Part shown: piece by piece, positions 6,165 to 35,335 of the stretch
Numbering within the stretch: the stretch's first letter is position 1
How the letters are laid out: each line of letters begins with the position of its first letter
Source: an uncultured Roseivirga sp.
GTDB taxonomy: Bacteria; Bacteroidota; Bacteroidia; Cytophagales; Cyclobacteriaceae
Length of the DNA: 64,000 bases
Reading direction: 5' to 3'
NCBI GenBank assembly: GCA_947493005.1
Contig: CANLOY010000001.1
Location: forward strand, 248,001-312,000
Made by a program: the position numbers and the translations under genes
The notes under the pieces: model-generated
Told to the model about the DNA's origin: nothing
Database searches by the model: none
What the model saw: the letters and a program-made list of their open reading frames with translations, nothing else

Positions 6165-7037
6165 ATGGGAGTTCTGACACCTAATACGATTACTATTTCG
6201 GTTGTCCTTTACAAAAACAGCCCTTTACATATAAAGCAGTTATCTGATAGTTTGTTGTCGACTAGTCTACCCATTGATGTCTTCTTTATCGACCATTCCC
6301 CGACTGATAGTTTAAAACGGAATATCCCGAAAGAAAAGAACTTTCATTATACATGGGGTAAAAAGAACAAAGGGTACGGAAGGGGACACAATTCTATTAT
6401 TGAAAAATTTCTTGATTCTGGAGAATATCATTTGGTCATCAATCCAGATGTGTACTTTAAATCTGGTACTCTGGAAAAAATAGTAAACTTCCTTGACGAC
6501 AGAGAAGATATTGGGCTATTGCTTCCTCGCGTCCTGAACCCTGATGGAACTGAACAACCCTTGTTTAAGTTACTACCAAAACCACAGGATTTATTCATTA
6601 GAAGGTTTATACCTTCAATTTTAAAAACACTGTTTGGAAAAAGTCAGGATTTGTACCAAATGTCTTTTGCCGATGAGAAAGAGAGTTTCGATGCCCCATA
6701 TCTTTCTGGGTGTTTTATGTTTATGAGAAAGAAGTGTTTGAAAGAGGTTGGGTTATTTGACCCTAGATTTTTTCTCTATTGTGAAGATGTAGACCTATCG
6801 AGAAGGATAAGAGCCCACTCAAGAACTACTTACTTTTCCGAGGCTTCCATTCACCATTACTTCAATAAAGGTTCTTACAAAAGCCTTAAACTACTATACT
6901 ATCATGTTTCTTCAGCCATTAAGTATTTTAATAAATATGGCTGGTTAAATGATATTGAAAGAGATCAGATAAATGAAGAAACGCTAAAAGCATTTCCAAA
7001 GCTAAAAAGGGTTACTTCCTTTTATCATGCAAAATGA
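6165..7037 (+). CDS. Family 2 glycosyltransferase (rhamnosyl/WcaA-like)
   Basis: A 290-residue cytoplasmic GT2 enzyme that should transfer an NDP-activated sugar onto a lipid-linked or glycan acceptor. The GT-A start is ITISVVLYKNS, the nucleotide-sugar site is NPDVYF near residue 94, and the acceptor/catalytic region is YLSGCFMFMRKKCL followed by FFLYCEDVDLSRRIR. This order is typical of rhamnosyltransferase-like GT2 proteins. It opens a nine-gene plus-strand operon in which each junction overlaps; its stop overlaps the next start by four bases. The ~160 bases upstream carry the divergent symporter operon and the likely promoter. Sugar specificity is unknown. Confidence 0.85.
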   Translation: MGVLTPNTITISVVLYKNSPLHIKQLSDSLLSTSLPIDVFFIDHSPTDSLKRNIPKEKNFHYTWGKKNKGYGRGHNSIIEKFLDSGEYHLVINPDVYFKSGTLEKIVNFLDDREDIGLLLPRVLNPDGTEQPLFKLLPKPQDLFIRRFIPSILKTLFGKSQDLYQMSFADEKESFDAPYLSGCFMFMRKKCLKEVGLFDPRFFLYCEDVDLSRRIRAHSRTTYFSEASIHHYFNKGSYKSLKLLYYHVSSAIKYFNKYGWLNDIERDQINEETLKAFPKLKRVTSFYHAK

Positions 7038-7981
7038 ATACACACGCAGCACACATCTCTATGCTTGAAAAAGCAATTCTTGAAGTATTGGCTTATACAC
7101 ACATATTCAATCACCCATTGAACAGAAGTGAAATTTTTTTACGCCTTAGTGTTAAGCATGTGGATGCATCGACATTCGATGACTCCATAAACAGGCTAAC
7201 AACTTCAGGAGCTATTCAACACTCCAATGGTTTCTATTTTCTAAAAAACTCAGCCTCTATTATTGACGAAAGAAAAGCAGGAGAATTGAGAGCTAAAAAA
7301 CTAATGAGAACTGCAAAACGCATGTCAGGAATTATTTATTGGTTTCCTTTCGTACGAGGAGTTTTCGTTTCAGGATCCCTATCAAAAGGTGTTATCCCAA
7401 AAGATGCGGATATAGATTACTTTATAATTACTAAAAGAAACAGGCTTTGGATTGCAAGAACACTACTTGTGGTTTTCAAGCGACTATTTCTTTTTGGCTC
7501 CAAAAAATACTTTTGCGTAAATTATTTTGTAGATGAGGGCAATCTGGAAATACCAGATAAAAATGTATTTACAGCTACAGAAGTTAGTACAATAATTCCA
7601 TTGAAAGGAACTCAATATTGTGAGCAATTCATAGCCAAAAATGATTGGTACAAAAATTTTTATCCTAACATCAACCTCCCCAAAATGCCAGTATCAAACC
7701 CTGGGCTTATGAAAAATTTTTCAATGTTAATTTTAGAGCCTCTTTTCTTTAACAGTTTAGCAGAAAAACTGGATAAAGACTTTATGAAGAGGACATACAA
7801 ACGCTGGACAAATATGTACGGCCAAGGATATTCTGATACTGAATTTGAACTTGCTTTCAGATCAAAAAGAGGCACTTCAAAAAATCATGATAAAAATTAT
7901 CAATCAAGAGTCCTCAAAGCCGTTGAGGAAAATGTAACGAGAGCTTTGGAAGGTGTAAAAACAGAAACTATCAATGCCTAA
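7034..7981 (+). CDS. Nucleotidyltransferase-domain protein with N-terminal winged-helix-like region
   Basis: A 315-residue protein. Residues ~10-75 look like a winged helix (LEKAILEVLAYTHIFNHPLN, then a short beta hairpin GAIQHSNGFYFL). Residues 114-128 carry the DNA-polymerase-beta-type nucleotidyltransferase motif GSLSKG...DADID, with acidic metal ligands at 124/126/128. The C-terminal half is helical and unassigned. It overlaps its neighbours by four and eight bases within a glycan/radical SAM operon, so a biosynthetic rather than toxin role is plausible. It might adenylylate or otherwise nucleotidylate an intermediate or partner protein; no substrate is evident. Its DNA is clearly AT-rich. 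Confidence 0.6.
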   Translation: MNTHAAHISMLEKAILEVLAYTHIFNHPLNRSEIFLRLSVKHVDASTFDDSINRLTTSGAIQHSNGFYFLKNSASIIDERKAGELRAKKLMRTAKRMSGIIYWFPFVRGVFVSGSLSKGVIPKDADIDYFIITKRNRLWIARTLLVVFKRLFLFGSKKYFCVNYFVDEGNLEIPDKNVFTATEVSTIIPLKGTQYCEQFIAKNDWYKNFYPNINLPKMPVSNPGLMKNFSMLILEPLFFNSLAEKLDKDFMKRTYKRWTNMYGQGYSDTEFELAFRSKRGTSKNHDKNYQSRVLKAVEENVTRALEGVKTETINA

Positions 7982-9440
7982 GGTACTTGTCACAAATACT
8001 TATTTTTATCCTCTGGATTCCAAGCAATGGCATTTTAAGAAACCATATCCTCCCCTTGGCACCATTCAGGTTTCTGCCTTGCTTAAAGAAAAAGGATTCG
8101 ATGTTCAGTTTTATGACAACTGTTTAAACGAAGACCCTTCAAAAATTGGTTCGGTAATAAACAGCTTTGAACCAGATTACTTCCTGATTTATGATGATGG
8201 CTTCAACTATCTGACCAAAATGTGTCTGACCGTAATGCGAGATGGAGCATATACTATGGCTTCATTAGCAAAAACGGCTGGTGCAAAAGTTATAATTAGC
8301 AGTTCAGATTCCAGTGATAGATTCGATCAATACCTTCAGCATAATATGGATTATGTCATTATGGGAGAAGGCGATGAAACTATTACGTCTCTAATTCAGA
8401 CTCTTGAAGAAGGTAATTCGGTTGAAAACGTTTCTGGAATATCATATCTCGATGAAAACGAAGGGGCAATAAAAACTCCTAAGAGAGCGGTTTTACAAAA
8501 ACTAGACGACCTCCCTCTTGCAGCATGGGACCTTGTAGATATAGAAGCTTATAAAAGAATATGGGTCTCTAACCATGGGTATTTTAGTATTAACATTGCT
8601 ACAACCAGAGGCTGCCCCTATAAATGTAATTGGTGTGCCAAACCCATCTATGGGAACCGATACAACTCCCGTTCTCCTGAGCATGTGATTAAAGAGATAA
8701 AGCTGTTGACCAGCAAATATGGTGTCAACCATTTTTGGATGTGTGATGACATTTTTGGGTTAAAACCAAACTGGGTTCAACATTTCAACAAGTTGGTTAA
8801 AGAACATGGTTTGAGTTTTCAATATATGATTCAGTCGAGAGTGGATTTACTATTGCAAGAAGATACAATAGATGCTCTTGTAGAGTCAGGGCTCGAAACC
8901 ATCTGGCTTGGAGCTGAGTCAGGTTCTCAACATATTCTAGATGCCATGGACAAAGGCATTACTGTGGAACAAATCCATGATGCCGTACCAAAACTTCAAA
9001 GAAAGGGGGTAAATGTGGCCTTGTTTCTTCAATTTGGTTATTTGGGAGAAACCTTAGAAGATATTTATAAGACCATCAATATGGTATTAGAAATTATGCC
9101 TGAAGAAATAGGCATATCCGTTTCTTATCCTCTTCCGGGCACCAAGTTTTATGATAAAGTAAAAGATGACTTACAGGCAAAAGCCAATTGGGTAGATTCT
9201 GATGATTTAGATTTAATGTTTGAGAACACCTACTCTCCAACATTCTACAAAAAGCTTCATCGATATGTACACAATAAGCATAAGCTGAAAAGAGGAGTTA
9301 TGGCAATGAAAAAAGGGTTAACCTCGCCTAAACAAATCAACAAAAAACTAGCTCGTCAAATTCTTACAACTGGATATCACCTTCCGATGTCAATTATCAA
9401 TGGAGCAACATTTAGGAGGCTGGCCAAAAATAGTAGATGA
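7974..9440 (+). CDS. B12-binding-type radical SAM protein
   Basis: A 488-residue enzyme with an N-terminal Rossmann-like cobalamin-binding-type domain (about 1-150; KPYPPLGTIQVSALL, then MGEGDETI) and a radical SAM barrel. The [4Fe-4S] cluster ligands are C214, C218 and C221 in TTRGCPYKCNWC. The downstream ESGSQHILDAMDKGI segment is typical of the BchE/class B-like group. The usual DxHxxG cobalamin signature is not visible, so B12 binding is uncertain. It shares layout and motifs with the protein at 10228-11637; the two flank a methyltransferase. Possible reactions include C-methylation or ring rearrangement of a sugar or lipid; the actual one is unknown. Confidence 0.8.
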   Translation: MPKVLVTNTYFYPLDSKQWHFKKPYPPLGTIQVSALLKEKGFDVQFYDNCLNEDPSKIGSVINSFEPDYFLIYDDGFNYLTKMCLTVMRDGAYTMASLAKTAGAKVIISSSDSSDRFDQYLQHNMDYVIMGEGDETITSLIQTLEEGNSVENVSGISYLDENEGAIKTPKRAVLQKLDDLPLAAWDLVDIEAYKRIWVSNHGYFSINIATTRGCPYKCNWCAKPIYGNRYNSRSPEHVIKEIKLLTSKYGVNHFWMCDDIFGLKPNWVQHFNKLVKEHGLSFQYMIQSRVDLLLQEDTIDALVESGLETIWLGAESGSQHILDAMDKGITVEQIHDAVPKLQRKGVNVALFLQFGYLGETLEDIYKTINMVLEIMPEEIGISVSYPLPGTKFYDKVKDDLQAKANWVDSDDLDLMFENTYSPTFYKKLHRYVHNKHKLKRGVMAMKKGLTSPKQINKKLARQILTTGYHLPMSIINGATFRRLAKNSR

Positions 9441-10231
9441 CAGAACTCTTCGACATAGCGTCCAAAACATATGATCATGACTTCACTTATACTAAGACGG
9501 GAAGACTTCAGAGAGACATGGTATGGAAATATCTAAACCCGAATGTTCAATCATCCAAGCCACTAAAAATTTTAGAACTCAACTGTGGTACTGGTGAAGA
9601 TGCTATACACATGGCAAAATCAGGAAATTCGGTACTTGCCACTGATATTTCACCTGAAATGGTTTCTCGAACAAGAGAGAAATCAATTCAACACAAATTA
9701 GAGACTCTGGTTTCTTCTCGCACCATTGACATGAGAATGATAAGTGAAGATATTGGAGAAGAGCGTTTTGACATCATTTTCTCAAACTTTGGGGGACTTA
9801 ATTGCATTAGTCAGATAGAGATTCAAAGATTCAAACAATCCATTAAGCGTCTATTAAAACCAAATGGAAGAGTTATTCTTGTCATAATGCCTAAACTGTG
9901 CCTTTGGGAGAGCTTCTATTTTCTAACTAAACTTAAGGTAAAAGATGCTTTCAGGAGAAAGAAAGAATCAGTTAATGCAAATGTGTCTGGAGTGTTTGTG
10001 AAAACATGGTATTACTCCCCGAATGATATTAAAAAGATTTTTGCTCCAGAATTCAAAAGCGTCAAAGTAAAGCCTATTGGTTTTTTTGGCCCACCATCAT
10101 ATCTGGAATCGTTCTTCGTCAAAAAGAAGCTACTATTTCGAGTATTTGAACAATTAGAAAAAGGGCTATCCCGTTTTTCATGGCAAAGCAAAATGGCCGA
10201 TCATTTCTACATTGAACTGCAAGCTAAATGA
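9437..10231 (+). CDS. Class I SAM-dependent methyltransferase
   Basis: A 264-residue enzyme with motif I at residues 46-53 (LELNCGTG), an acidic end of strand 2 (ATDISPEMV) and motif IV-like FDIIFSNFGGLNCI. It should transfer a methyl group from SAM to a small molecule or sugar, probably O- or N-methylation. It lies between two B12-type radical SAM genes and overlaps both by four bases, which suggests that the three act on the same intermediate. The C-terminal ~100 residues are Lys/Phe-rich and unassigned. Confidence 0.82.
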   Translation: MTELFDIASKTYDHDFTYTKTGRLQRDMVWKYLNPNVQSSKPLKILELNCGTGEDAIHMAKSGNSVLATDISPEMVSRTREKSIQHKLETLVSSRTIDMRMISEDIGEERFDIIFSNFGGLNCISQIEIQRFKQSIKRLLKPNGRVILVIMPKLCLWESFYFLTKLKVKDAFRRKKESVNANVSGVFVKTWYYSPNDIKKIFAPEFKSVKVKPIGFFGPPSYLESFFVKKKLLFRVFEQLEKGLSRFSWQSKMADHFYIELQAK

Positions 10232-11637
10232 AGGTGCTTCTAACACATGGCTACTTTATAGCTGAGGACGAGAAAGAACAACAGATTATGCGTCCCTACC
10301 CTCCGCTAGGTCTGCTATATATATCTGGTTTCTTAGAACAGCAAGGTATACTCAATACTGTATTTGACAGTACATTCTCTACCAAAAAAGACCTATTCAA
10401 TGAAATAGAAAATAGTCAGCCCGAGGTTCTTGCTATTTATGCTAACCTTATGACCAAGCTGAATGTACTTGAAATTGCAAAAAAGTGTAGTGTGCTTTCT
10501 CCAAATACAAAGGTTGTTATGGGGGGTCCGGATGTCACCTACAACCTGGAAAATTACCTTAAGCATGGTGCTGACTACATAGTCATAGGAGAGGGTGAAA
10601 ATACAATGCATGAACTGGTGAGCTTTTTGTCTGAGGGTAATGATCAACAACCTTTGGGGATTTCTGGCCTGGCATTTCTAGATGCCCATGGAGAACTCAT
10701 AAAAACAGCACCAAGAACAAAAGTCAGAGACATTAATGAATTGCCTTTCCCTAACCGGGATGCGATACCTCTTCAAAAGTATCTAGAGGCTTGGAAAAGT
10801 CATCATGGCCAAAGTGCCTTGAATGTTAGTACGCAACGCGGCTGCCCATATACCTGCAAATGGTGTAGTACAGCAGTTTATGGACAAAGTTATCGCAGAA
10901 GGTCTCCGGAAAAGGTTGTGGCAGAGCTCAAAGAAATTCAGGAAAAGTATAACCCCGATACGATCTGGTTTGTTGATGATGTTTTTACAGTTAGCCATAA
11001 GTGGTTAAAAGCCTTCTGTGAGGAACTGGAAAAAGAACAGGTTAGCATTTCATTCGAGTGCATCAGCAGAGCCGATCGCATGAACGAGGAAGTCATTGGT
11101 TTATTAAAAAGAGCTGGGTGTTTTCGTATATGGATTGGTGCGGAAAGTGGCTCTCAAAAAATCATTGATGCCATGGATCGTAGAGTTTCGGTAGATCAGG
11201 TACGGGATATGATCATAGAAGCCAGAAAACAAAGTATCGAGACAGGTACTTTCATCATGTTGGGGTATCCTGGCGAAACAGAGGAAGATATTAAAGAAAC
11301 AATTAATCACCTTAAAATCTCCAATCCTGATCACTTTACGATTACTGTTGCCTACCCCATCAAGGGAACCGATTTATATGATGAAATAGAATCTATTAAA
11401 GTAAACAGTCCAGAATGGCACTTAAGCACCGATAGAGACATTGACTTTAAAAGAACTTATAATCGTAAATATTATGACCATGCTGTTAGTCATGTTATCT
11501 CTGAAGTAAATTTCCACAAGCGCATTTCTCATGGAAAAAGGGACATTCAAGGGCTCAAATCATGGCTCAAAAGCAAACGAGCTCGTCTGATGATGAATAT
11601 GTATCGAGGAAAAGCAGCCAAGGAATCAGCCAATTAA
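10228..11637 (+). CDS. B12-binding-type radical SAM protein (second of pair)
   Basis: A 469-residue paralogue of the enzyme at 7974-9440. It starts with a Rossmann-like B12-type domain (RPYPPLGLLYISGFLEQQG; VVMGGPDVTYNLENYL; VIGEGENTMHEL) that is better preserved than in its partner. The radical SAM cluster ligands are C206, C210 and C213 (QRGCPYTCKWC). GAESGSQKIIDAMDRRVS and GYPGETEEDIKETI follow, as in the HpnJ/BchE-like group. The start overlaps the methyltransferase stop (ATGA). Its stop overlaps the next start (TAATG at 11635-11639). Substrate unknown. Confidence 0.82.
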   Translation: MKVLLTHGYFIAEDEKEQQIMRPYPPLGLLYISGFLEQQGILNTVFDSTFSTKKDLFNEIENSQPEVLAIYANLMTKLNVLEIAKKCSVLSPNTKVVMGGPDVTYNLENYLKHGADYIVIGEGENTMHELVSFLSEGNDQQPLGISGLAFLDAHGELIKTAPRTKVRDINELPFPNRDAIPLQKYLEAWKSHHGQSALNVSTQRGCPYTCKWCSTAVYGQSYRRRSPEKVVAELKEIQEKYNPDTIWFVDDVFTVSHKWLKAFCEELEKEQVSISFECISRADRMNEEVIGLLKRAGCFRIWIGAESGSQKIIDAMDRRVSVDQVRDMIIEARKQSIETGTFIMLGYPGETEEDIKETINHLKISNPDHFTITVAYPIKGTDLYDEIESIKVNSPEWHLSTDRDIDFKRTYNRKYYDHAVSHVISEVNFHKRISHGKRDIQGLKSWLKSKRARLMMNMYRGKAAKESAN

Positions 11638-12785
11638 TGCTTGCGCCAAAACGAAATATCACCAGGTTATTGACCAATGCTGCCCTGTCCATCGTGAGCC
11701 TGAGTCTTGTCTTATTTTTTGCAGAGGTTTTTTTGAGAAACTGGAAACCCCATGACCGGTTTTACTCACTGGCTCCTGAAATCGATTTATCTGTAGATTT
11801 CCCTGCCACAGACCTTTACCCAGGGCTACCAAAGCAATTCACATTTACCACCAACCACCAGGGACATCGCTCTGCCAACCTGTTTGAAAAAGGCAGGTAT
11901 GGTATTTTGGCCATTGGCGGCAGTACTACTGAGTGTACCTATGTGGGCGATGAAAACCTCTGGACAAATTTGCTGGAAGCGAAATTGAATCAGGAGTATG
12001 ACCAACCTGTAACCATTGGCAATGTTGGTGTGGCTTCTCTCAATTCTGAACATCATTTGCTGCAGCTCCAACATCTGAGCCCACAATATGAAGGTGTTGA
12101 GGCGGTACTCATCCTTGTAGGTGTAAATGACTTCCTCAAGGCGCTTTATCCTAATGTCTATATGGGAGACAGTGCTAAGCAGGCTCGCAGGGCTTTTTCC
12201 GGTTTTCCACGCTCTTTAAATAACCGGTGGTACAAAAGAACCGAACTTTGGATGCACCTGAGAGACTTTAAGATCAACCGGTTAAGATCTGGTGGAGTAG
12301 GAGGAAATTTCAGACAAGAAGTTTCAAGCCGTAGGACCATGCTGGCTCAGGCTAAGCGAATCAATACATTGCCCGATCTTTCTGTGGACCTAGAACGCTA
12401 TGAAAATACCATTACTAAAATATATGAGTACTGCCAGACCCACTCTAAAGAATTGATTCTGGTAACTCAACCCTTGCTTTGGAATCAGGAAATGCCAGAG
12501 CATGACTTTGCACTTACAGCCAATGGCGCCTACTTTTCAGCAGACAGCACACTCAATCCAGGCTTATATCATACTGGTATTTCACTGTACAACAAAGTGC
12601 TCCAAGGCTTTGACAGCCTCGATGGCGCAACTGTCATAGATCTGGCTGCCACACTACCACAAGACACCACTGTCTTTTATGACTATTGTCATTTCAATAT
12701 TCGAGGATCGCATCAAGTGGCCGATATCATCTTTCAGAGTATACAATCACTTTTTGACGAAATTGCGGGAGATCAACATGATTAG
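11637..12785 (+). CDS. SGNH/GDSL-type hydrolase or acyltransferase-like protein, membrane-anchored
   Basis: A 382-residue protein with one N-terminal membrane anchor (about residues 15-35), placing the rest in the periplasm. Block I is AIGGSTTE with the nucleophile Ser, a GVNDF block lies in the middle, and the C-terminal catalytic pair is YDYCHFNIRGSHQVAD. SGNH proteins in glycan loci usually remove or transfer acyl groups on polysaccharide. I chose ATG at 11637, which overlaps the upstream stop as TAATG; an upstream in-frame ATG at 11562 would cause a 76-base overlap and adds a polar, unlikely leader. Confidence 0.72.
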   Translation: MLAPKRNITRLLTNAALSIVSLSLVLFFAEVFLRNWKPHDRFYSLAPEIDLSVDFPATDLYPGLPKQFTFTTNHQGHRSANLFEKGRYGILAIGGSTTECTYVGDENLWTNLLEAKLNQEYDQPVTIGNVGVASLNSEHHLLQLQHLSPQYEGVEAVLILVGVNDFLKALYPNVYMGDSAKQARRAFSGFPRSLNNRWYKRTELWMHLRDFKINRLRSGGVGGNFRQEVSSRRTMLAQAKRINTLPDLSVDLERYENTITKIYEYCQTHSKELILVTQPLLWNQEMPEHDFALTANGAYFSADSTLNPGLYHTGISLYNKVLQGFDSLDGATVIDLAATLPQDTTVFYDYCHFNIRGSHQVADIIFQSIQSLFDEIAGDQHD

Positions 12786-13593
12786 TTCAAGGGTAGATAT
12801 TCTCAAGCCATTTTTAAATGATGGAGTAAAAACCAGCGCATTGTCCAATTCACTTTTTGTAGTTGGTGAGCAAGTCGACAATGCCTTTGAACAAGCATAT
12901 CTGGAAATAAGAAAGAAAGAAAACCGAGTGCTCTCAGACAAGGAGGTGCTTCAATTGCCTGTATTACCCAGGAAGCATCAGCACCACAAGGAGTGGGTTT
13001 TGCGTCTGGATAGTCTGAATCGCTTTTTTAAATACCTCTACAAAAACCCGGTAAAAGGCCCTGTTTTAGACATTGGTTGCGGCAATGGTTGGTTTACAAA
13101 TATCCTTCAACAACGAACCAAAGAGCAAGTCATTGGAATCGATGTGAACATGGAAGAGCTCAGACAAGCAAGCAAACTCTTTCGGAATGAAAAATTAATT
13201 TTCTGCTATACAGATATCTTGAAACCCTGCTTTCGAGATAATCAATTTGCAATAATTACTCTCAATGCTTCAGTTCAATACTTTCATTCACTACCTGTTC
13301 TTTTACGGAAGCTTAACAAACTGCTATTACCAGGTGGTGAAATTCATTTAATCGACACTCCTTTCTACAAAGATAAAGAGGTCAATGCTGCCAAAAAAAG
13401 ATCAGCAAAGTACTATAGTAATCTTGGGCACAAATATTTTGCTAATCAGTATTTTGCTAGGTCATGGAATGAACTTGAAGGGTTTCAATACACCGTAAAA
13501 TATCGTCCTAGTTTTTTAAGAAAGAAGCTCCAAAAGTCACCTTTCCCTTGGGTAGTCATACATTCACAAAACAAGAAACCACAATATGCTTAA
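12778..13593 (+). CDS. Class I SAM-dependent methyltransferase
   Basis: A 271-residue enzyme with motif I at about residues 96-104 (VLDIGCGNG), the acidic residue after strand 2 in GIDVNMEEL, and a motif IV region AIITLNASVQYFHSL. It resembles UbiE/type 11 methyltransferases acting on lipids or small molecules. ATG at 12778 overlaps the SGNH stop by eight bases; the longer in-frame start at 12679 would overlap by over 100 bases and is less likely. The stop overlaps the following GT2 start by eight bases. The substrate is not evident. Confidence 0.78.
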   Translation: MISSRVDILKPFLNDGVKTSALSNSLFVVGEQVDNAFEQAYLEIRKKENRVLSDKEVLQLPVLPRKHQHHKEWVLRLDSLNRFFKYLYKNPVKGPVLDIGCGNGWFTNILQQRTKEQVIGIDVNMEELRQASKLFRNEKLIFCYTDILKPCFRDNQFAIITLNASVQYFHSLPVLLRKLNKLLLPGGEIHLIDTPFYKDKEVNAAKKRSAKYYSNLGHKYFANQYFARSWNELEGFQYTVKYRPSFLRKKLQKSPFPWVVIHSQNKKPQYA

Positions 13594-15750: not shown

Positions 15751-15755
15751 TAAGC

Positions 15756-16694: not shown

Positions 16695-16775
16695 ACGATC
16701 GTTTTAGGAGAAATAAGCTAGCAATTAATCGTGATAATCTCTTTATATTTTCTGGTAATTCACAAATAACCCAGC

Positions 16776-17918: not shown

Positions 17919-18024
17919 AGGGAACAGCCTTTTCTTACAATCAACCGTATTAGTTACAATTATTATAAACCAATCATTCTTTTTATTTTTCCTTTTTGGT
18001 AGATCATAACATCAGGTCATTTTC

Positions 18025-18744: not shown

Positions 18745-18769
18745 CAGGTAAAACAATACAGACCAAGAC

Positions 18770-20979: not shown

Positions 20980-20986
20980 TTGGTAT

Positions 20987-22108: not shown

Positions 22109-22138
22109 GATCGGTGCTGTTAAATCACATTAGAGGTT

Positions 22139-23236: not shown

Positions 23237-23470
23237 TTCTTCTATCGGAAAAGTATTGATGACAATGCGCTAAAATAGGAAAACAATCGGGTACGCCATT
23301 AAAAATTGATATACTAGATGTAGCGCTTAAAAGAATCAGGCTTCAATATGTGCTTCATTTAAAACACGTAATCATAGATAACTAATACTTTTTGTAATGC
23401 AGAAATTCCTTCTTAACCTGTATATTGGCTGATTGAAGAGAAAGCACCATTAGGAATTGAGCATTTAAGG

Positions 23471-24562: not shown

Positions 24563-24567
24563 ATCTT

Positions 24568-26091: not shown

Positions 26092-26098
26092 CCCACCT

Positions 26099-27413: not shown

Positions 27414-27414
27414 A

Positions 27415-28263: not shown

Positions 28264-29903
28264 GGTTTTAGTTTCGTAACAGTTATTTTATTTTCTCCCG
28301 GGAGCCAACGAGCGTATTGAACCACCTTGATTGTTTCCTGCTCCATACCCGGCACAAACCTGACCTGGTATCTAGGCTCATCTCGTTTCCACCAGGTAGG
28401 ATTTTCATTGTCAAACAAATACCAGCCTTCAAACTCAACCCCTCCTCCAATTTCTAAATTATTGATGCCTTTTGTCTGCAATTCTTCAATTAAGCGCCAA
28501 CGCAGTCTGTTATAGGACATATAATCGTGGGTAGCCGCTGTGGAAAAGCATATGAACAAGGTCAAAAAGCTAAAGCCAGCCCGCAACAGAATCGTTTTGG
28601 TCCCTTCCCATTGCAGCCACCTGATTATTAACATAGCCACCAGGGGCATCATAAAAATCAGGTAGCGATCATAGTAACCGGTGATCATAAATGGCCCCAT
28701 ATAGCAAACAATCAGCACCAAAAGAAAGCTCTCTATGCTTTGTAGTTTCCAGGACCTTTCACGAATGTCATTAAACAGCAGTACTGCCATCACCGTCCCA
28801 AAAAACGCCCCGATGATGGTGATCAAGGATAGTAGCCAAACTGGTGCAGCCCCTCCCGGAGGAGCCATTCGAAAACTGCCAAAGTAGTCCATCATGGTAT
28901 TGGGGCCTACACCAAGATTGATAAACACATTGTCTACAGCCGGAATGGTTTTATTAGTGGCAATGAGCATTCCTGCCAACAAAACAGTCGAAATGACTAT
29001 CAGCCACCATTGTTTAAACTCAATACTCCGCCACCGAAGGAAAAAGAGCAATGGCGATAAAAACAGCCCCATATAAACGAAAAACAGAGCAATATACCCT
29101 ATGGTATTGCGCAACTGCCTGAGGCCTGCCTCCTGAAGAAACCCTTTCAATACCCTGAGTTTTGAGCCATAGGTATCAGGTAGCAAACCATAGTCGCCCA
29201 TCAGTTTGTTGAAGATCAGCAACACCGCCAAGCTTACTAAGAAAGGTAAACCCTTCCATGCCCAGGATCGGTCATTTTCTCTTTTGACTAACCAATGACT
29301 AATCAACCAGGCAAAAGGGATGACAAGGGCCAATTGCCGGGACAGCATGGCCCAAATGGTAAACAAAATAGCATAAATCAATGCCCTCCCTGACTGTTTC
29401 AAATCGGCTCTTATGAAAAAGTAAACAGCCCAGATGCAAAATGTGGTAAAGGGCAGATCGGTCATGTATGAAAATGACAGAGCCATATAAACCGGGCAAG
29501 CCAAAACGACCAGACCGGCCATGAATGCAATTTGTCTGGATGGTTGTACTAACAATAGCAACCTGTAGACACCAAACAAACCTAAAAATGATAGGATCAG
29601 GGTGGTGACACGTAATAGCACAAAAGAAAAACCAAAGATTTTGGCCAGTAGGGTTGCCGGAATCAAATGACTCACCAAGCTCATCTCTCCCCAGTTAATC
29701 AATTGAAACTGGCCTTTCTCCGCCCACTTCTTCACAATGATGGCATAGGCCCAATCATCATTAATGGGGAATTCGCCCAGAGGGTTGACCAACAAGATGA
29801 TGCCCAGCCACATAAGAAAAATGATCAGTATATGAGGATAATTCCCCGATTGGAGATTATTGGAGAAGCCATGGCCGTGTTTAAAAAGTGTCATGGTCAC
29901 CAT
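28260..29903 (-). CDS. Polytopic GT39/ArnT-like glycosyltransferase
   Basis: A 547-residue inner-membrane protein with about eleven hydrophobic segments. FPINDDWAYAIIVKKW after the first segment is the acidic DD/DE catalytic motif of GT39/ArnT-type GT-C enzymes. The C-terminal ~70 residues are periplasmic. It should transfer a sugar from a polyprenyl phosphate onto an exported glycan, lipid or protein. It overlaps the upstream GNAT gene by 23 bases (14 if the ATG at 29894 is used) and the downstream oxygenase by four. It is the longest of the three GT-C proteins in the locus. Confidence 0.8.
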   Translation of the reverse strand: MVTMTLFKHGHGFSNNLQSGNYPHILIIFLMWLGIILLVNPLGEFPINDDWAYAIIVKKWAEKGQFQLINWGEMSLVSHLIPATLLAKIFGFSFVLLRVTTLILSFLGLFGVYRLLLLVQPSRQIAFMAGLVVLACPVYMALSFSYMTDLPFTTFCIWAVYFFIRADLKQSGRALIYAILFTIWAMLSRQLALVIPFAWLISHWLVKRENDRSWAWKGLPFLVSLAVLLIFNKLMGDYGLLPDTYGSKLRVLKGFLQEAGLRQLRNTIGYIALFFVYMGLFLSPLLFFLRWRSIEFKQWWLIVISTVLLAGMLIATNKTIPAVDNVFINLGVGPNTMMDYFGSFRMAPPGGAAPVWLLSLITIIGAFFGTVMAVLLFNDIRERSWKLQSIESFLLVLIVCYMGPFMITGYYDRYLIFMMPLVAMLIIRWLQWEGTKTILLRAGFSFLTLFICFSTAATHDYMSYNRLRWRLIEELQTKGINNLEIGGGVEFEGWYLFDNENPTWWKRDEPRYQVRFVPGMEQETIKVVQYARWLPGENKITVTKLKP

Positions 29904-30804
29904 AATTCAATTTAAAGCTGTCGAAATCAAGGCCAGATTCTAAGTCTAAATAACCAACTGTCCATGATTCATACCCGGTATAAAGAGATTGCAACTGCAT
30001 ATTTTGATTAGAGTTTACCGAAACATGAAACTGGATTTCATGAATACCTAGTTTTCTACACAAGATTGTCAACTGTAAAATGGCATTCTTCAAGTCTTGC
30101 ACAGATGGTGACTCGAAAGTCCCAACATGAATGGCACTTTTAATCTTTAACCACAGCTTTACATTGTCGATCATGATAACCCTATTGAATGAGAAAAGCT
30201 TATAATCGAAATAACTCTGATCATATAGCTGAGCCAAGCGACCTTCTGCCAACAGTGGGTTTGACATGTAGCTTAAAGTCTCAAATTTCTTTAATGCACT
30301 TTCGACAGTGGAGCAATAAACTCTATTCAATGCCGCCATGCGATTGGCAACTTTACTCACAGGAAGAGTTTTAATTCTAATGTGATATCTTTTCATAGAT
30401 TCGCCCACAACCCAACCTAGTTTTTTAGTCGCCCTCAAGGTGTTTAAGCTATGCATGGCATATACGAATCTAACATCATTTTCTCTCATAAATTCATAAG
30501 AACGTAAAGCCAAGTTGGTATGTAATCCTCTTCTGTGATGTGCTGGAAGTGTGAATGAATCACAGGCATGTACTGCCTTTATTAATTTCCCGTTTTGCTG
30601 AAAGAGTTGGGGCAACCCTCCGTACATTGCTACAGGTTTATCATTCTCATATGCTAAAAAACCTACATATTTTAATCCTGTGTATTCAGTACCATACTTT
30701 TTAAGTAAGTACTCGTTTGACACATTTTTATTAAAAACTGATTTAAAAAGGAACTTTACATCGGATATCCGATCATCAGACATCCTCTGATAATGATAGC
30801 TCAT
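29881..30804 (-). CDS. GNAT-family acyltransferase
   Basis: A 307-residue protein with a GNAT core in the first ~170 residues: YVGFLAYENDKPVAMYGGLP, DSFTLPAHHRRGLHTNLAL (the acyl-CoA loop RRGLHT) and RFVYAMHSLNTLRATKKLGW. The C-terminal half is a second, diverged domain as in double-GNAT or FemX-like proteins. It should acylate an amino group of a sugar or a small molecule. It begins the three-gene stretch ending with the oxygenase; 102 non-coding bases separate it from the deacetylase gene upstream. An N-acetylated amino sugar fits the deacetylase in the same locus, but that is inference. Confidence 0.75.
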   Translation of the reverse strand: MSYHYQRMSDDRISDVKFLFKSVFNKNVSNEYLLKKYGTEYTGLKYVGFLAYENDKPVAMYGGLPQLFQQNGKLIKAVHACDSFTLPAHHRRGLHTNLALRSYEFMRENDVRFVYAMHSLNTLRATKKLGWVVGESMKRYHIRIKTLPVSKVANRMAALNRVYCSTVESALKKFETLSYMSNPLLAEGRLAQLYDQSYFDYKLFSFNRVIMIDNVKLWLKIKSAIHVGTFESPSVQDLKNAILQLTILCRKLGIHEIQFHVSVNSNQNMQLQSLYTGYESWTVGYLDLESGLDFDSFKLNYGDHDTF

Positions 30805-30906
30805 TCACAAAAGTCATTTAGTCTGCCTATTTCATAAAAATTTAAAGGAGGTGAAAGTTGCCTAACAGCTATTCTACCAACATAGATTAAAGTAGCCAAT
30901 TTTAGT

Positions 30907-31881
30907 TTAATATCTACCTTTTATGATGGCTTTTGCCTGATGATGAAGTTTAATATAGGGATTTAAGCCAAAACGAGACCAAACCCTTGGGTCTGTTTCG
31001 TGGGCTTGAGACTGGTAATCTACTGCTAATTGATATCGATACCCTGCCTGCTCAGCCAAGTCTATGACCTTATCATTATAAGACCCATCCGGGTAGGCCA
31101 GTGAGTCTATTTTCTCTTGTAAAGTGTTTTCCAGATATTCTTTTGAGCGTTTCAAATCTTCAATCACTGTGGACTCAGATACCTCATCATAGTTGTTATG
31201 ATACAGACCATGCGCCCCAATACTCACCCATTTTGATTGATTTAACTGTCTCAATTCATCAGCATTCATTAGTTTCCAGTACAAGTTCAGTTCCTCATTT
31301 TTTCGAAAATCCTCTGACACCTGTTCCATCATGGCCAGTTTAAAAGAAAAGTCTTCTTGTCGGCAGATGTTTTTGAGCGAATGACCCATAGTCGCCTCAT
31401 AAAATTCGTGTTTTCCTTTTACGAAGCTTCTACCAGCAATTTCAATGTTATCACGAGAAAACTGAAAACCGAGATCTAAATAATCTGACCACAAAATATC
31501 TTGATTAATTGCCTGAATGGTTGTGACAAAAAAAGTAGCGGGTAACTCATACTTTTCAAGCAATGGCAAAGCCAATTGTAAATTATTCAGATAGCCATCA
31601 TCAAAAGTTAAGGCAATATTAAAGCGATCAGGTTTCTGTTTGCCTTCCAACAAATCAGTAAGCGGAAGTACGTGAAAGTGCTCCTTGAAAAATGCCAACT
31701 GACGTTCAAAATATGTCTGACTTATAAATCGGGTATTAAAGGCCAATGAACCATGATAGTCGATGCCATGATAAATGAAAATACGAGAACCCCGAGCATT
31801 TTGCCAATAGGTATCGGGTAGCCATTGAGCAGAATAATCATGCCAAGTCCAGTTGACCCTTTTCTTAATTTTACTAATCAA
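30907..31881 (-). CDS. Polysaccharide deacetylase family protein
   Basis: A 324-residue NodB-like (CE4) protein. The core motif is ALTFDDGYLNNLQLALPLL, with the catalytic Asp and metal-binding Asp. The second metal motif is weakened: IGAHGLYHNNYDEVS gives H..H, and LAYPDGSYNDKV replaces the usual RPPxG region. It would remove acetyl groups from glycan. I prefer the TTG at 31881, preceded by GAGGGTGAAGG, giving an eight-base overlap with the upstream SGNH gene; an in-frame TTG at 31923 is possible. I see no clear signal peptide with this start. Confidence 0.78.
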   Translation of the reverse strand: MISKIKKRVNWTWHDYSAQWLPDTYWQNARGSRIFIYHGIDYHGSLAFNTRFISQTYFERQLAFFKEHFHVLPLTDLLEGKQKPDRFNIALTFDDGYLNNLQLALPLLEKYELPATFFVTTIQAINQDILWSDYLDLGFQFSRDNIEIAGRSFVKGKHEFYEATMGHSLKNICRQEDFSFKLAMMEQVSEDFRKNEELNLYWKLMNADELRQLNQSKWVSIGAHGLYHNNYDEVSESTVIEDLKRSKEYLENTLQEKIDSLAYPDGSYNDKVIDLAEQAGYRYQLAVDYQSQAHETDPRVWSRFGLNPYIKLHHQAKAIIKGRY

Positions 31882-32887
31882 TACCTTCACCCTCTTGTAT
31901 ATTTTGCAATAAGTACTCTCCAATTAACCTCTGGCCTTCAAAATTGAGATGATTGTCGTTATTGAAATAGGTCCGAATGCCCATTTCCTCCTGAGTCTTT
32001 AAAAATGTAATCGGGTTAAGAAGCTTTACCCGGGAATCATCCTTAAAAAAAGATTGAAAGCGTCTTGTCAGCGGTGTATCCTCTGTTCCTACCTCAAAGT
32101 CTTTAGAAAACACAGCCCCTAATTGTATGGTTCTATCATTATAGGTATGGCTGACCTGAGAAGCATGAGGTATAACCAATACATAAATGTGGCAATCTGA
32201 ATCTGCTTTAGCAAACAATTTTCGCACCCTGCTGAGGTAATCCTCTAAGTGTGCTGCTCTGCCTTCCTTGAGGTAAACTGAATTCTCAATGAGCATTGGT
32301 TCCACCCGATAATATAGTTTGTCTCTTCCTGTAAAAAAATCAGGCGAAAAATCCTTAGAAAGAAAATCATATGCTACCACGGGTTTACTCGAACTGCGCA
32401 GTACAGCTAACCTTTGGTTGAGGTAATTAAGACACCATAGATGCTCAGATATTTGCCAATAGAGGTTTCTAGCCATACTAGCCTCCGACCAGCGTACAGG
32501 ATGATCCCAGCTAAAAAGGTCATTACCCACATAGTACTGAAAAATCAATACGTCTGGACTCAGCTGCTTCAATTTGTGTTTGCCAAAAAGGTATTGCTCT
32601 CGGATGTTAGTACCGGATACACTGGCATTATACGTATTATGACTGGTCAGATGATCATTTAAAAAAGAAGCATAACCTTCCTTAAAAGCAGTAAAAGAAT
32701 CACCAATTAAGAGTAAGTCATCATTATCCTCAACTCTTCTGAAACCTTCATTCAAACCATTGATAGCGTAGCCATAAAAGTCGATGACATAAAAGCGAAA
32801 GCCGACTTCAAAAATAAATAATGTAGTACTCCCAATAATGGCACATTTGAAAAGTAGTCTAAAGGACTTCTTAACAAAGCTTTGCAT
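31874..32887 (-). CDS. SGNH hydrolase/acyltransferase-like membrane-anchored protein
   Basis: A 337-residue protein with an N-terminal anchor (LLFKCAIIGSTTLFIFEVGF) and a periplasmic SGNH domain: LLIGDSFTAFKEG, the FQYYVGNDLF block and NDNHLNFEGQRLIGEYL with the catalytic Asp-His. ATG at 32887 overlaps the SxtJ-like stop as TGATG. SGNH genes next to carbamoyltransferase/SxtJ-like units suggest a role in decorating the same product. It is diverged from the tandem SGNH pair at 21-23 kb. Confidence 0.75.
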   Translation of the reverse strand: MQSFVKKSFRLLFKCAIIGSTTLFIFEVGFRFYVIDFYGYAINGLNEGFRRVEDNDDLLLIGDSFTAFKEGYASFLNDHLTSHNTYNASVSGTNIREQYLFGKHKLKQLSPDVLIFQYYVGNDLFSWDHPVRWSEASMARNLYWQISEHLWCLNYLNQRLAVLRSSSKPVVAYDFLSKDFSPDFFTGRDKLYYRVEPMLIENSVYLKEGRAAHLEDYLSRVRKLFAKADSDCHIYVLVIPHASQVSHTYNDRTIQLGAVFSKDFEVGTEDTPLTRRFQSFFKDDSRVKLLNPITFLKTQEEMGIRTYFNNDNHLNFEGQRLIGEYLLQNIQEGEGID

Positions 32888-33282
32888 CACCAAAGCTCCT
32901 CCAAATCTTTACTTGAAAACCAATGCTTTCTTGCAACCCATGTGGATCTAAAATTGTCATTTTCTGTCTTAAATTTTCCTTTCCCAGAGAATAGTTTCTG
33001 AAGCAAGGATATAGGCGTAAGAATCAAAAAATAAACCAATGTGAGTAGTACACTTCCAACGACCTTGCCCATAACATGGCCTAAAAACATCCATCCTTGA
33101 GCAACTATTCTGGCAATTGTTTTGGATAGTGCTGACGCCAAACCAATAACCCCAGCCATGTAAATCAAGGTGATCACATTCTCCTCCCATTTCCATTCTA
33201 TCAGAAAATAAATAGCAATGAGTCCTGAGACTAAACCGAGCACAATTGCTTCAGAGCTTTGTTTTAGCTTAGGAGTCTTCAA
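32887..33282 (-). CDS. SxtJ-family membrane protein
   Basis: A 131-residue membrane protein with two to four hydrophobic segments (SSEAIVLGLVSGLIAIYFL; LIYMAGVIGLASALSKTI; VGSVLLTLVYFLILTPISLL) and a polar tail ending in RKHWFSSKDLEELW. It matches the SxtJ family, named from the saxitoxin cluster and found next to O-carbamoyltransferases in many bacteria. I take TTG at 33282, five bases after the DUF5989 stop; a longer frame from 33333 would read through that gene. Function unknown; it probably helps the carbamoyltransferase at the membrane. Confidence 0.75.
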   Translation of the reverse strand: MKTPKLKQSSEAIVLGLVSGLIAIYFLIEWKWEENVITLIYMAGVIGLASALSKTIARIVAQGWMFLGHVMGKVVGSVLLTLVYFLILTPISLLQKLFSGKGKFKTENDNFRSTWVARKHWFSSKDLEELW

Positions 33283-33286
33283 AAGT

Positions 33287-33436
33287 CTAGAATAGAGAAT
33301 AAATGAATGGCGACATAGCGGAACCTCCACCAAAAACGATCAGGAACCCTAATAGTAATAATACTAGTATGATTGGCATCAACCAGTACTTTTTTCTCTG
33401 CATCAAAAATTTACCAAGATCTCTAACTACTGACAT
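33287..33436 (-). CDS. DUF5989 / SxtK-like 49-residue membrane protein
   Basis: A very short gene between carbamoyltransferase and SxtJ-like genes. The 49-residue product starts MSVVRDLGKFLMQRKKYW, has one hydrophobic segment (MPIILVLLLLGFLIVF) and ends GSAMSPFIYSLF. This is the pattern of the DUF5989 family, whose members lie beside NodU/CmcH-type carbamoyltransferases, like SxtK of the saxitoxin cluster. Its ATG lies inside the carbamoyltransferase coding end (14-base overlap), so translation is probably coupled. It is too short for most gene finders. Function unknown. Confidence 0.85.
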   Translation of the reverse strand: MSVVRDLGKFLMQRKKYWLMPIILVLLLLGFLIVFGGGSAMSPFIYSLF

Positions 33437-35240
33437 TACGGTTCTTTTTTAAAAGGTAATTTCCTAAAAATAAATAATCCATATCCGTTTTCATAAAACA
33501 GTCATAAGCATCTTTCGGTGAGCAGACAATCGGTTCGTCTTTTACATTGAAACTAGTATTAATTAATATGGAATTACCTGTTAGTTTTTTATACGCAGAT
33601 AGTAATGGGTGAAAGTTGGGATTAGTTACCTCATCAACTGTTTGAATTCTGGAGGAATAATCAACATGTGTAATACCAGGAAAAGTGGATTTTTCAGTTC
33701 TGCTCTTATCTAAAATAGAAAGCTCTTCGAAATCTGATGGAAGCGGTTTTTGAAATTCCTCGTTTATATCAGCTACCAATGCCATGTATGGCGAAGCTTC
33801 GGATAACTCGAAGTATTTTTCAAGATCTTCCTCCAACATTACAGGAGCAAAAGGTCTGAAGGATTCTCTGAATTTAATTTTTTGATTCACGATTCGTTGT
33901 ATGTCCTGAGTTAAAGGGCTAGCAACAATACTTCTGGCTCCTAAAGCACGAGCTCCAAACTCCATTCGTCCTTGCATCCAGCCAATGACGGCACCTTCCA
34001 CAAGAAGTTGTGCTGCTTTACCACAAAGCACCTCCTCATCTGGTATCTGTTCGAATTGTACATCTTTAGATAGCAGGAAAGCCTCTATTTGAGAATCAAC
34101 ATATTCAGGCCCAAGGAAGGAAATTCTGTTTTTTTCAAATTGATCCAAATCTCTCTGCTTATCTGACTCCAAGTAATAACTAGCCAAAGCGGCTCCTCCA
34201 GCACCTCCAGAATCTCCTACAGAAGGTGGAACAAATACATTCTTGAATATTTCTTCCTTAAGAAGTCTTCCATTGGCAACACAGTTATAAGCAACCCCAC
34301 CAGAAAGACATAGGTTTGTTTGGCCTGTTACTCTTTTGGCTTCCTTTGCCAACTTAATAACAATTTCTTCGGTCAAATCCTGAGCTGCCAAAGCAAAGTC
34401 ACAATGACTCTGTTCTAAAGCATCCGATTCTTTCCTGGGAGATAAATCAAACAGGCTCTCCCATTTATCTGGAGATATCATCCGTTTACCTAAAAGGAAT
34501 TCAAAGTAATCCATCTGAAGCTGAATGGAGCCGTCTTCAAAAACATCGACAAGCTCTGGTAGTTTCTTTTTAAACCTTTGATAGGCTTCGTTTTTTCTGT
34601 CACCATACGGAGCTAGTCCCATCATTTTATACTCTCCATCATTCACCTTGAAACCCAAAAACTGAGTAAATGAAGAATAAAGAAGCCCCACAGAATGTGG
34701 GAAATGTTGTTCTTTTACTACCTCAATATTGTTCCCTTTTGCGTTAAAAATTGAAGTAGTTGTCCACTCTCCAACACCATCAATGGTAAGAACAGCACTA
34801 TCCTGAAAAGGAGAGGTATAGTATGCCCATGCAGCATGAGAAAGATGGTGCTCCGAAAACAGTAGTTTTGCTTTTTTATATTGGCCTCTGTTCACATCTT
34901 TCAGGCCATCCTTAAGCAGTTTTTTGAAAAAGATTTTTTCGCTAATCCATTCAGGCATATGTTTCACAAATGCTCCCAGTCCTTTTGGAGCAATGGCATA
35001 AAACGTTTCTAGAATACGCTCGAACTTGATAAATGGCTTATCATAGAAAACAATCGTCTCTATATCATCAAGTCTAATTTGTGCCTGATCGAGACAAAAC
35101 TGAATTGAGTTTATCGGGAAAGAGGAATCATGCTTTTTTCTGGTAAATCTTTCTTCCTGAGCGGCTGCAGAAATCAAACCATTCCTTAACAAACAAGCAG
35201 CTGAGTCATGGTAAAAAGCGCTAATTCCTAATGTGTACAT
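33423..35240 (-). CDS. O-carbamoyltransferase (NodU/CmcH/SxtI family)
   Basis: A 605-residue cytoplasmic enzyme of full family length. The N-terminal Kae1-like domain begins YTLGISAFYHDSAACLL and carries EHHLSHAAWAYY (metal-binding His residues, about 130-141) and LTIDGVGEWTT; NLCLSGGVAYNCVANGR follows. The C-terminal domain has FGARALGARSIVASP and NTSFNVKDEPIVCSP, typical of Carbam_trans_C. It forms carbamoyl-adenylate from carbamoyl phosphate and ATP and transfers the carbamoyl group to a hydroxyl of a sugar or other product. The ATG at 35240 is preferred over an in-frame TTG at 35261. It heads the minus-strand operon. Confidence 0.92.
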   Translation of the reverse strand: MYTLGISAFYHDSAACLLRNGLISAAAQEERFTRKKHDSSFPINSIQFCLDQAQIRLDDIETIVFYDKPFIKFERILETFYAIAPKGLGAFVKHMPEWISEKIFFKKLLKDGLKDVNRGQYKKAKLLFSEHHLSHAAWAYYTSPFQDSAVLTIDGVGEWTTTSIFNAKGNNIEVVKEQHFPHSVGLLYSSFTQFLGFKVNDGEYKMMGLAPYGDRKNEAYQRFKKKLPELVDVFEDGSIQLQMDYFEFLLGKRMISPDKWESLFDLSPRKESDALEQSHCDFALAAQDLTEEIVIKLAKEAKRVTGQTNLCLSGGVAYNCVANGRLLKEEIFKNVFVPPSVGDSGGAGGAALASYYLESDKQRDLDQFEKNRISFLGPEYVDSQIEAFLLSKDVQFEQIPDEEVLCGKAAQLLVEGAVIGWMQGRMEFGARALGARSIVASPLTQDIQRIVNQKIKFRESFRPFAPVMLEEDLEKYFELSEASPYMALVADINEEFQKPLPSDFEELSILDKSRTEKSTFPGITHVDYSSRIQTVDEVTNPNFHPLLSAYKKLTGNSILINTSFNVKDEPIVCSPKDAYDCFMKTDMDYLFLGNYLLKKNRNVSS

Positions 35241-35335
35241 CAAGGCGAATATATAAAACAACCTAAGTAGTTTTACATCAAGTCTGAGAAAAAGGAATTC
35301 TTAATTGAAATGTAAAATGTACTCTCCTTTTTATC

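What the first reader, a model, noticed from the sequence alone, without database searches (positions are those of the whole stretch)
6165..35240. A 29 kb glycan-type locus rich in radical SAM, SGNH and GT-C genes
The stretch combines three B12-type and one SPASM-type radical SAM proteins, four methyltransferases, four SGNH proteins, three GT-C-like transferases, two DPM1-like GT2, GT4, another GT2, a flippase, a deacetylase, a GNAT, a 2OG oxygenase, a carbamoyltransferase with SxtJ/K-like partners, and a winged-helix nucleotidyltransferase. No sugar-nucleotide synthesis genes and no recognisable polymerase are present. That content is unlike a standard capsule or O-antigen locus. It would fit an unusual lipid-linked product heavily modified on a carbon skeleton. 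This is the best candidate in the window for an undescribed system.
Basis: partly seen in the sequence, partly recalled or inferred. Interest (0 to 1): 0.78.

Follow-up and report, generated by a model that had tools for sequence, protein, structure and literature searches.

The report
Conserved radical-SAM core in glycan locus
A block of 28 genes in a Bacteroidota genome is built around a small set of radical enzymes of the vitamin-B12 type that keeps together with the same partner genes in distant relatives, perhaps to make an unusual surface sugar or lipid.

Summary
The block is not uniform. A core is conserved: nucleotidyltransferase g2, B12-type radical SAM g3, methyltransferase g4, extended by radical SAMs g5 and g18. 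In 395 phylum genomes g3 is in 27 and g2 in 28 (those 27 plus one weak hit), within 4.4 kb of each other; g18 (17) and g5 (7) occur only in those 27 at the thresholds used. One genome has g3 and g4 fused. Eight family genomes carry the locus at the same site (beside ZIP, with apbE and/or ruvB); two congeners have the site without it. SGNH, GT-C, carbamoyl and most other genes of the block are cargo: in eight wide family maps GT-C orthologues are absent, the carbamoyl cassette is in one. Best reading: a polyprenyl-linked surface glycan or lipid whose building block the radical enzymes modify at carbon. Substrate, product and reaction are unproven, and some relatives keep the core with few sugar genes nearby. 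A hopanoid role is unlikely (no cyclase found). Ten paper searches found no description. New variant of a known kind, possibly a new pathway.

The parts
6165..7037 (+). g1 GT2 glycosyltransferase
   Evidence: Pfam PF00535 3.5e-8; relatives in 15 of 80 g3 loci
7034..7981 (+). g2 pol-beta-type nucleotidyltransferase (core)
   Evidence: NTP_transf_2 17.7 bits, under cut-off 21; S113-G114, D126, D128 invariant and S115 nearly so in 48 sequences; 28 of 395 genomes incl. all 27 g3 genomes
7974..9440 (+). g3 B12-type radical SAM (core)
   Evidence: Radical_SAM 3.9e-20; the three Cys invariant in 15 sequences; 27 of 395 genomes
9437..10231 (+). g4 SAM methyltransferase (core)
   Evidence: Methyltransf_25 2.9e-15; 75 of 80 loci; fused to g3 in L144
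10228..11637 (+). g5 B12-type radical SAM
   Evidence: B12-binding 3.9e-15 and Radical_SAM 7.4e-26; 56 of 80 loci; 7 of 395 genomes, all with g3
11562..12785 (+). g6 SGNH hydrolase/acyltransferase-like; start may be later (11652)
   Evidence: Lipase_GDSL_2 7.1e-9
12679..13593 (+). g7 SAM methyltransferase; start may be later (12778)
   Evidence: Methyltransf_11 7.7e-15
13586..14329 (+). g8 DPM1-like GT2
   Evidence: PF00535 1.6e-17; AglJ, PpgS below cut-off; 11 of 80 loci
14326..15750 (+). g9 GT-C (PMT_2)
   Evidence: 27.1 vs cut-off 26.1; 12 of 80 loci
15756..16694 (-). g10 probable flavin split-barrel-like protein
   Evidence: no Pfam hit at E<=0.01; profile matches chain 4l82 at 1.9e-5 (fold and FMN recalled); relative L068 hits Flavin_Reduct at 0.0011, below cut-off; weak relatives in 5 of 8 wide family maps, 2 of 27 phylum loci
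16776..17918 (+). g11 GT-C (PMT_2)
   Evidence: 29.1 vs 26.1
18025..18744 (+). g12 DPM1-like GT2
   Evidence: PF00535 6.6e-33; AglJ 102.8 bits, below cut-off 325
18770..19822 (+). g13 GT4
   Evidence: PF00534 4.8e-21
19819..20979 (+). g14 putative Wzx-like flippase
   Evidence: no Pfam hit; about 8 hydrophobic segments; weak relatives in 13 of 80 loci
20987..22108 (-). g15 SGNH
   Evidence: 37.3 vs 32.9
22139..23236 (-). g16 SGNH
   Evidence: 30.6, under cut-off; GDS motif kept
23471..24562 (+). g17 radical SAM/SPASM
   Evidence: Radical_SAM 8e-18, SPASM 1.9e-10
24463..26091 (+). g18 B12-type radical SAM; likely start 24568
   Evidence: Radical_SAM 4e-15; 9 of 148 family and 17 of 395 phylum genomes, all with g3
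26069..26776 (+). g19 methyltransferase (PrmA/HemK-like), follows g18
   Evidence: MTS 3.1e-20; 6 of 8 wide family maps, 5 of 27 phylum loci
26766..27413 (+). g20 weak methyltransferase
   Evidence: 23.8 vs 27
27415..28263 (-). g21 2OG-Fe(II) oxygenase
   Evidence: 9.1e-16
28260..29903 (-). g22 GT-C (PMT_2)
   Evidence: 51.6 vs 26.1
29881..30804 (-). g23 GNAT
   Evidence: 33.1 vs 25
30907..31923 (-). g24 polysaccharide deacetylase
   Evidence: 1.3e-26
31874..32893 (-). g25 SGNH-like
   Evidence: 20.5, under cut-off 32.9
32887..33333 (-). g26 SxtJ-like membrane protein
   Evidence: 23.7 vs 24.4
33287..33436 (-). DUF5989 (SxtK-like), 49 aa
   Evidence: 82.6 vs 27
33423..35261 (-). g27 carbamoyltransferase
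   Evidence: PF02543 2.2e-81, PF16861 9.5e-68
1513..35335 (.). extra DNA relative to congener G057, in which the CDF gene (625-1512 here) and ZIP gene (35336-36115 here) are neighbours

Best explanation
The block is a chromosomal, presence/absence locus with a conserved enzymatic core and variable glycan-assembly cargo. Shown: the core (g2 nucleotidyltransferase, g3 B12-type radical SAM, g4 methyltransferase; often with radical SAM g5 or g18) stays together in distant relatives. Inferred: the radical SAM enzymes modify an unactivated carbon (most likely C-methylation; deoxygenation or ring rearrangement are alternatives) of a sugar- or lipid-type building block, with g2 nucleotidylating the substrate or an intermediate and g4 methylating the same substrate. 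Inferred: glycosyltransferases (g1, g13) extend it on a polyprenyl carrier, g14 flips it, g8/g12 make polyprenyl-phosphate sugars for the membrane GT-C enzymes g9/g11/g22 outside, and SGNH, deacetylase, GNAT, 2OG and carbamoyl enzymes decorate it. The variable cargo would give each species its own surface structure.
For: Joint distribution in whole-genome searches: g2 28 and g3 27 of 395 with 27 shared, g18 17 of 395 and g5 7 of 395 all inside the 27; Fisher 6e-41, 3e-23, 3e-9; with genera counted once 9e-27, 3e-15, 2e-5. g3 and g18 on one contig with starts at most 18 kb apart in 16 of 17. g3-g4 fusion. g2 in 76, g4 in 75, g5 in 56 of 80 g3 loci. Eight wide family maps: g2, g3, g4 in 8 of 8, g18 in 6, other contents different. 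In 13 g18 loci, 115 neighbouring ORFs include 18 GT4, 17 methyltransferases, 6 SPASM, 5 GT9, 5 GT87, 3 Wzy_C, 3 ABC. Of six hand-picked large neighbours four are ABC transporters and two GT87. Solved relatives of g3 include AprD4, OxsB, CysS, TokK (their substrates are recalled).
Against: In 9 loci without g18, 5 of 59 neighbouring ORFs are GT4, with histidine kinases, response regulators and deaminases among the rest; yet the GT4 share does not differ clearly from the g18 loci (18 of 115; Fisher 0.24), and no background set was scanned, so enrichment for sugar genes is not shown. g17, g19 and g10 are in only 1, 5 and 2 of 27 phylum loci. g3 and g18 do not pass Pfam's B12 cut-off. No substrate, product or reaction was tested; no structure could be predicted. 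No Rfam hit, so no known cobalamin riboswitch, in the window. The Fisher values ignore relatedness above genus.
Confidence: 0.45

Rival explanations
1. The nucleotidyltransferase-radical SAM-methyltransferase core makes its own small metabolite, cofactor or lipid, and the glycan genes are only frequent neighbours at a variable chromosomal site.
For: g3 is without g18 (E<=1e-100) in 10 of 27 phylum genomes, one of which (G435) has a partial g18 hit; several of the 9 such loci scanned have few sugar genes. The glycan genes differ between loci while the core does not. GT4 share of neighbours is not clearly higher with g18.
Against: In the window the core overlaps g1 and lies in one run of genes with GTs; one locus without g18 (L131) has two Wzy_C genes and a Polysacc_synt gene; the piece is absent as a whole, glycan genes included, from congener G057.
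Confidence: 0.33
2. An ordinary O-antigen/capsule-type locus in which radical SAM enzymes make a known kind of tailored sugar; nothing new beyond cargo.
For: Conserved core genes with variable content, GT2/GT4, flippase-like gene; Wzy_C in some relatives.
Against: No sugar-nucleotide family and no Wzy_C among the hits in the block; the conserved part is the radical SAM/NT/MT set; no listed NCBIfam hit of g3, g5 or g18 reaches its cut-off.
Confidence: 0.15
3. A hopanoid-tailoring (HpnJ-like) locus.
For: The HpnJ model matches g3, g5 and g18 (140.5, 146.2, 97.5 bits); deacetylase and GT2 present.
Against: Cut-off is 577.6; no squalene-hopene cyclase match in the genome (98.7% complete), while the control Bacillus subtilis rang.
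Confidence: 0.03

Closest known systems
Cobalamin-dependent radical SAM enzymes (CysS, TokK, OxsB, AprD4; NCBIfam BchE, HpnJ, rSAM_ladder_B12)
   Same: Radical_SAM domain with CxxxCxxC behind a B12-binding-like domain; sequence similarity
   Different: Below every NCBIfam cut-off listed; sits with a conserved NT/MT pair, which I do not recall for those enzymes
O-antigen / capsule biosynthesis loci
   Same: Glycosyltransferases, flippase-like gene, variable cargo at a fixed site
   Different: No sugar-nucleotide family or Wzy_C hit in the block; conserved part is radical SAM/NT/MT
Aminoglycoside tailoring (GenK, AprD4)
   Same: Radical SAM enzymes acting on sugars (GenK C-6' methylation seen in the start of the abstract of PMC4039129; the rest recalled)
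   Different: Here beside membrane GT-C and flippase-like genes
Carbamoyltransferase-DUF5989-SxtJ-SGNH cassette
   Same: This gene set at 31874-35261; carbamoyltransferase, SxtJ-like and SGNH-like genes also in G015, where DUF5989 was not looked for
   Different: Optional cargo, 1 of 8 wide family maps; no other saxitoxin genes seen in the block (names recalled)

Membership tests
HpnJ (TIGR03471) | score over curated cut-off 577.6 | tested here: not met
   g3 140.5, g5 146.2, g18 97.5 bits
BchE (TIGR02026) | score over cut-off 481.35 | tested here: not met
   148.3, 180.4, 96.4 bits
rSAM_ladder_B12 (TIGR04072) | score over cut-off 360 | tested here: not met
   114.3, 150.2, 57.4 bits
B12_rSAM_oligo (TIGR04295) | score over cut-off 400 | tested here: not met
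   85.5, 84.3, 37 bits
Cobalamin-dependent radical SAM (broad superfamily) | Radical_SAM domain with CxxxCxxC | tested here: met
Cobalamin-dependent radical SAM (broad superfamily) | B12-binding domain over Pfam cut-off | tested here: inconclusive
   g5 met; g3 and g18 below 32.1
Cobalamin-dependent radical SAM (broad superfamily) | binds cobalamin and makes 5'-deoxyadenosine | not testable with these tools
   needs purified protein
Wzx/Wzy O-antigen or capsule locus | polymerase in the locus | tested here: not met
   no Wzy_C hit in the block; one over cut-off elsewhere in the genome, C3:139691, and one below it, C6:63275; diverged Wzy proteins could be missed
Wzx/Wzy O-antigen or capsule locus | flippase | tested here: inconclusive
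   g14 has no Pfam or NCBIfam hit; hydrophobicity and weak relatives only
Hopanoid pathway | squalene-hopene cyclase in the genome | tested here: not met
Anti-phage defence | specific PADLOC model match over the whole protein | tested here: not met
   10 genes scanned; matches to PDC-M51A, viperin, mad2 and MTase models are partial or general radical SAM/MTase similarity (PADLOC's own cut-offs are not shown)
Saxitoxin-type carbamoyl cassette | carbamoyltransferase + SxtJ + SxtK/DUF5989 | tested here: inconclusive
   carbamoyltransferase and DUF5989 over cut-off, SxtJ 23.7 vs 24.4

The most novel reading that the evidence does not exclude
The nucleotidyltransferase, radical SAM and methyltransferase form an undescribed radical pathway, found in Bacteroidota and Ignavibacteriota, that builds a new carbon-branched sugar or lipid building block: the nucleotidyltransferase tags the substrate with a nucleotide, the radical enzymes alkylate or rearrange its carbon frame, and different species then assemble that block into different surface glycans.
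Probability: 0.3. Interest if true: 0.85.

Novelty: new variant of a known kind. Interest (0 to 1): 0.66.

Why it matters
It points to a set of radical enzymes that has kept the same partners in distant relatives (g3 in 27 of 395 sampled phylum genomes, all with g2) and to which the libraries and papers searched here give no specific function. If the product is a carbon-branched surface glycan or lipid, it would be new chemistry at the cell surface of environmental bacteria, with named hosts (Roseivirga, Flavobacterium, Winogradskyella, Aquimarina) in which it can be tested by deletion and mass spectrometry.

Tried and rejected
Hopanoid tailoring: unlikely, no squalene-hopene cyclase match and scores far under HpnJ. 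Defence: PADLOC gave only general or partial matches. Cobalamin riboswitch: no Rfam hit. Flanking repeats or plasmids: one 22-base inverted pair, taken as chance; no plasmid match for g3 at E<=1e-60. A fourth weak B12 hit about 10 kb past the window lies inside an IMP dehydrogenase gene. Amidohydrolase: my first profile wrongly held a GT4 and a GT9; rebuilt from 12 sequences it hits 13 loci, one a duplicate genome, 11 of the 13 with g18, none in the window genes. It and a nucleoside phosphorylase cluster in 8 loci could clear adenosyl by-products of SAM enzymes (nearest solved relatives 3v7p, weak, and an MTA phosphorylase): a lead only. A deaminase near three cores looks TadA-like in the one tested. 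Mantel correlations of g3 with g18, g5, g2, g4 (0.75, 0.87, 0.70, 0.60; n 40, 63, 108, 106) are confounded by species relatedness and not used as proof. The g3 tree puts the window with four Roseivirga and next to a mainly Saprospiraceae group, a hint of transfer. A claim that sugar genes are richer beside g18 failed its test (Fisher 0.24); I lowered the main reading from 0.5 to 0.45 and raised the first rival from 0.3 to 0.33 for that. The 80 genome-contig loci reach at most 10 kb from g3, so they cannot test the carbamoyl or far SGNH genes; the eight wide family maps were used instead. 9ccb could not be identified (unrelated papers). Paper searches, ten; I saw listings with starts of abstracts, and two passages of PMC8992657.

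Full report
What is there. The block 6165-35261 holds 28 genes on both strands. Weak points: g3 and g18 do not pass Pfam's B12 cut-off; g2, g16, g20, g25 and g26 are under their cut-offs; the flippase g14 has no family hit. Motifs are kept where looked for: CxxxCxxC in the four radical SAM proteins, GDS/GGS in the four SGNH proteins, G-S...D-x-D in g2, TFDDG in g24. Genes g1-g9 overlap or nearly touch one another in one direction, so they look like one operon.

Where it sits. The window is in a 4.88 Mb genome whose g3 groups with four Roseivirga sequences. In congener G057 the CDF gene and the ZIP gene that flank the extra DNA here are 30 bases apart; in G118 a CDF-type gene and ZIP are separated by ORFs of 419, 632 and 158 aa. 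In both, ApbE and RuvB follow ZIP as in the window. The locus is thus gained or lost as a piece of up to 34 kb. No RNA family hits or flanking repeats mark a mobile element, and g3 has no plasmid match.

A conserved core in the family. A search of 148 family genomes with g5 and the maps of neighbourhoods fetched show the locus beside ZIP, with ApbE and/or RuvB, in G011, G015, G074, G084, G093, G127, G136 and G137; in G129 g18 lies about 12 kb from ZIP. G061 and G133 have g3 without ZIP in the stretch fetched; G004, G046, G086 and G131 hold only distant radical SAM relatives; G044, G048, G051 and G062 lie on contigs without ZIP in view. In eight wide maps (28-60 kb: G011, G015, G074, G084, G127, G129, G136, G137) g2, g3 and g4 are in 8, g18 and g19 in 6, weak g10 in 5, g5 in 4, g17 and the carbamoyltransferase in 1, and GT-C g9, g11, g22 as well as g21, g23 and g24 in none. 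g18 is in 9 of 148 family genomes, all among the 16 with g3 (Fisher 1.6e-10).

Beyond the family. Their record titles name Cytophagales, Flavobacteriales, Saprospirales, Chitinophagales and Ignavibacteriota members, and one Acidobacteriota bin. These 80 were picked because they hold g3 and reach at most 10 kb from it.

The independent test. In 395 genomes of the phylum sample, searched gene by gene, g3 is in 27 (E<=1e-100), g18 in 17 (E<=1e-100), g5 in 7 (E<=1e-130) and g2 in 28 (E<=1e-20). All 17 and all 7 lie inside the 27; g2 is in all 27 and in one more (G267, 6e-23). Fisher values are 3e-23, 3e-9 and 6e-41; with each genus counted once 3e-15, 2e-5 and 9e-27. These ignore deeper relatedness. 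g3 and g18 lie on one contig, 1.5 to 18 kb apart, in 16 of 17; the exception G430 has a g2 gene split between the two contigs concerned. g2, or its nearer piece in G430, lies within 4.4 kb of g3 in all 27 (positions). In G246 g3 and g4 are fused in one 727-aa protein. g4 was not searched on its own; a g4-type protein is in 25 of 27 fetched phylum loci, the two misses being this fusion and the second contig of G430. In those 27 loci g19 is in 5, g10 in 2 and g17 in 1, so these three are not phylum-wide companions.

The cargo. Function classes recur rather than orthologues. In 13 g18 loci, 115 neighbouring ORFs include 18 GT4, 17 methyltransferases, 9 amidohydrolases, 6 SPASM, 5 GT9, 5 GT87, 3 ABC and 3 Wzy_C. 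Six large neighbours picked by hand are four ABC transporters and two GT87. In nine loci without g18, 59 neighbours include 5 GT4, 2 Wzy_C, 1 Bac_transf, and kinases, response regulators and deaminases. The GT4 shares do not differ clearly (Fisher 0.24). So some cores stand with few sugar genes near by; this is the main result against a purely glycan role.

What it probably does. Shown: the core is a unit. From the literature: cobalamin-dependent radical SAM enzymes methylate unactivated carbon or phosphorus, and the wider group contracts rings (PMC8992657, abstract passage). The closest solved relatives by sequence are 9ccb (not identified), AprD4, OxsB, CysS and TokK for g3, AprD4 for g18, and none at E<=1e-6 for g17. 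Inferred: carbon-level modification of a sugar or lipid building block that is then built into a polyprenyl-linked, flipped and decorated product. g8 and g12 have polyprenyl-phosphate-sugar synthases among their best matches, below cut-off, which fits the three GT-C enzymes. g10 may be a flavin split-barrel protein and could be a redox partner. For g2 the only solved relatives are two weak ones (MntA antitoxin, 0.12; another nucleotidyltransferase, 0.53); its reaction is a guess.

Against known kinds. No listed NCBIfam hit of the three B12-type radical SAM proteins reaches its cut-off. No squalene-hopene cyclase was found. A Wzy_C gene lies elsewhere in the genome, so a separate polysaccharide system may exist. 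Ten paper searches found no description of this locus; the library holds open-licence papers only.

Verdict. It is also narrower: the unit is the radical SAM/nucleotidyltransferase/methyltransferase core, not the whole block.

Noticed in passing
L144:9740-11920 (+): Natural fusion of g3 radical SAM with g4 methyltransferase (727 aa), a Rosetta-stone link.
   Followed up: yes
L134:14630-15784, L135:4032-5192 and others: An amidohydrolase family (12 non-duplicate loci, 10 of them with g18) accompanies the core in relatives but not in the window; it may clear adenosyl by-products.
   Followed up: partly
L094:14489-15232, L098:16596-17345: A nucleoside phosphorylase cluster recurs in 8 loci; for L094 the best solved relative is an MTA phosphorylase.
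   Followed up: partly
L014:87-1238: A 383-aa family with no Pfam hit recurs in 14 of the loci clustered (G015 and L068 are one genome).
   Followed up: no
L137 and L138 (G430): The g2 gene is split between two contigs, one with g3-g5 and one with g17-g19: assembly break or rearrangement.
   Followed up: no
window 1557-3863: A sigma-70-family factor with two unknown proteins (421 and 154 aa, no Pfam) next to a sodium symporter lies inside the DNA absent from G057.
   Followed up: no
window 38335-38727: A DUF559 / REase-like gene sits between ruvB and queG.
   Followed up: no
G000:C1:321776-322003: A weak B12-domain hit outside the window falls inside an IMP dehydrogenase gene, a false hit.
   Followed up: yes
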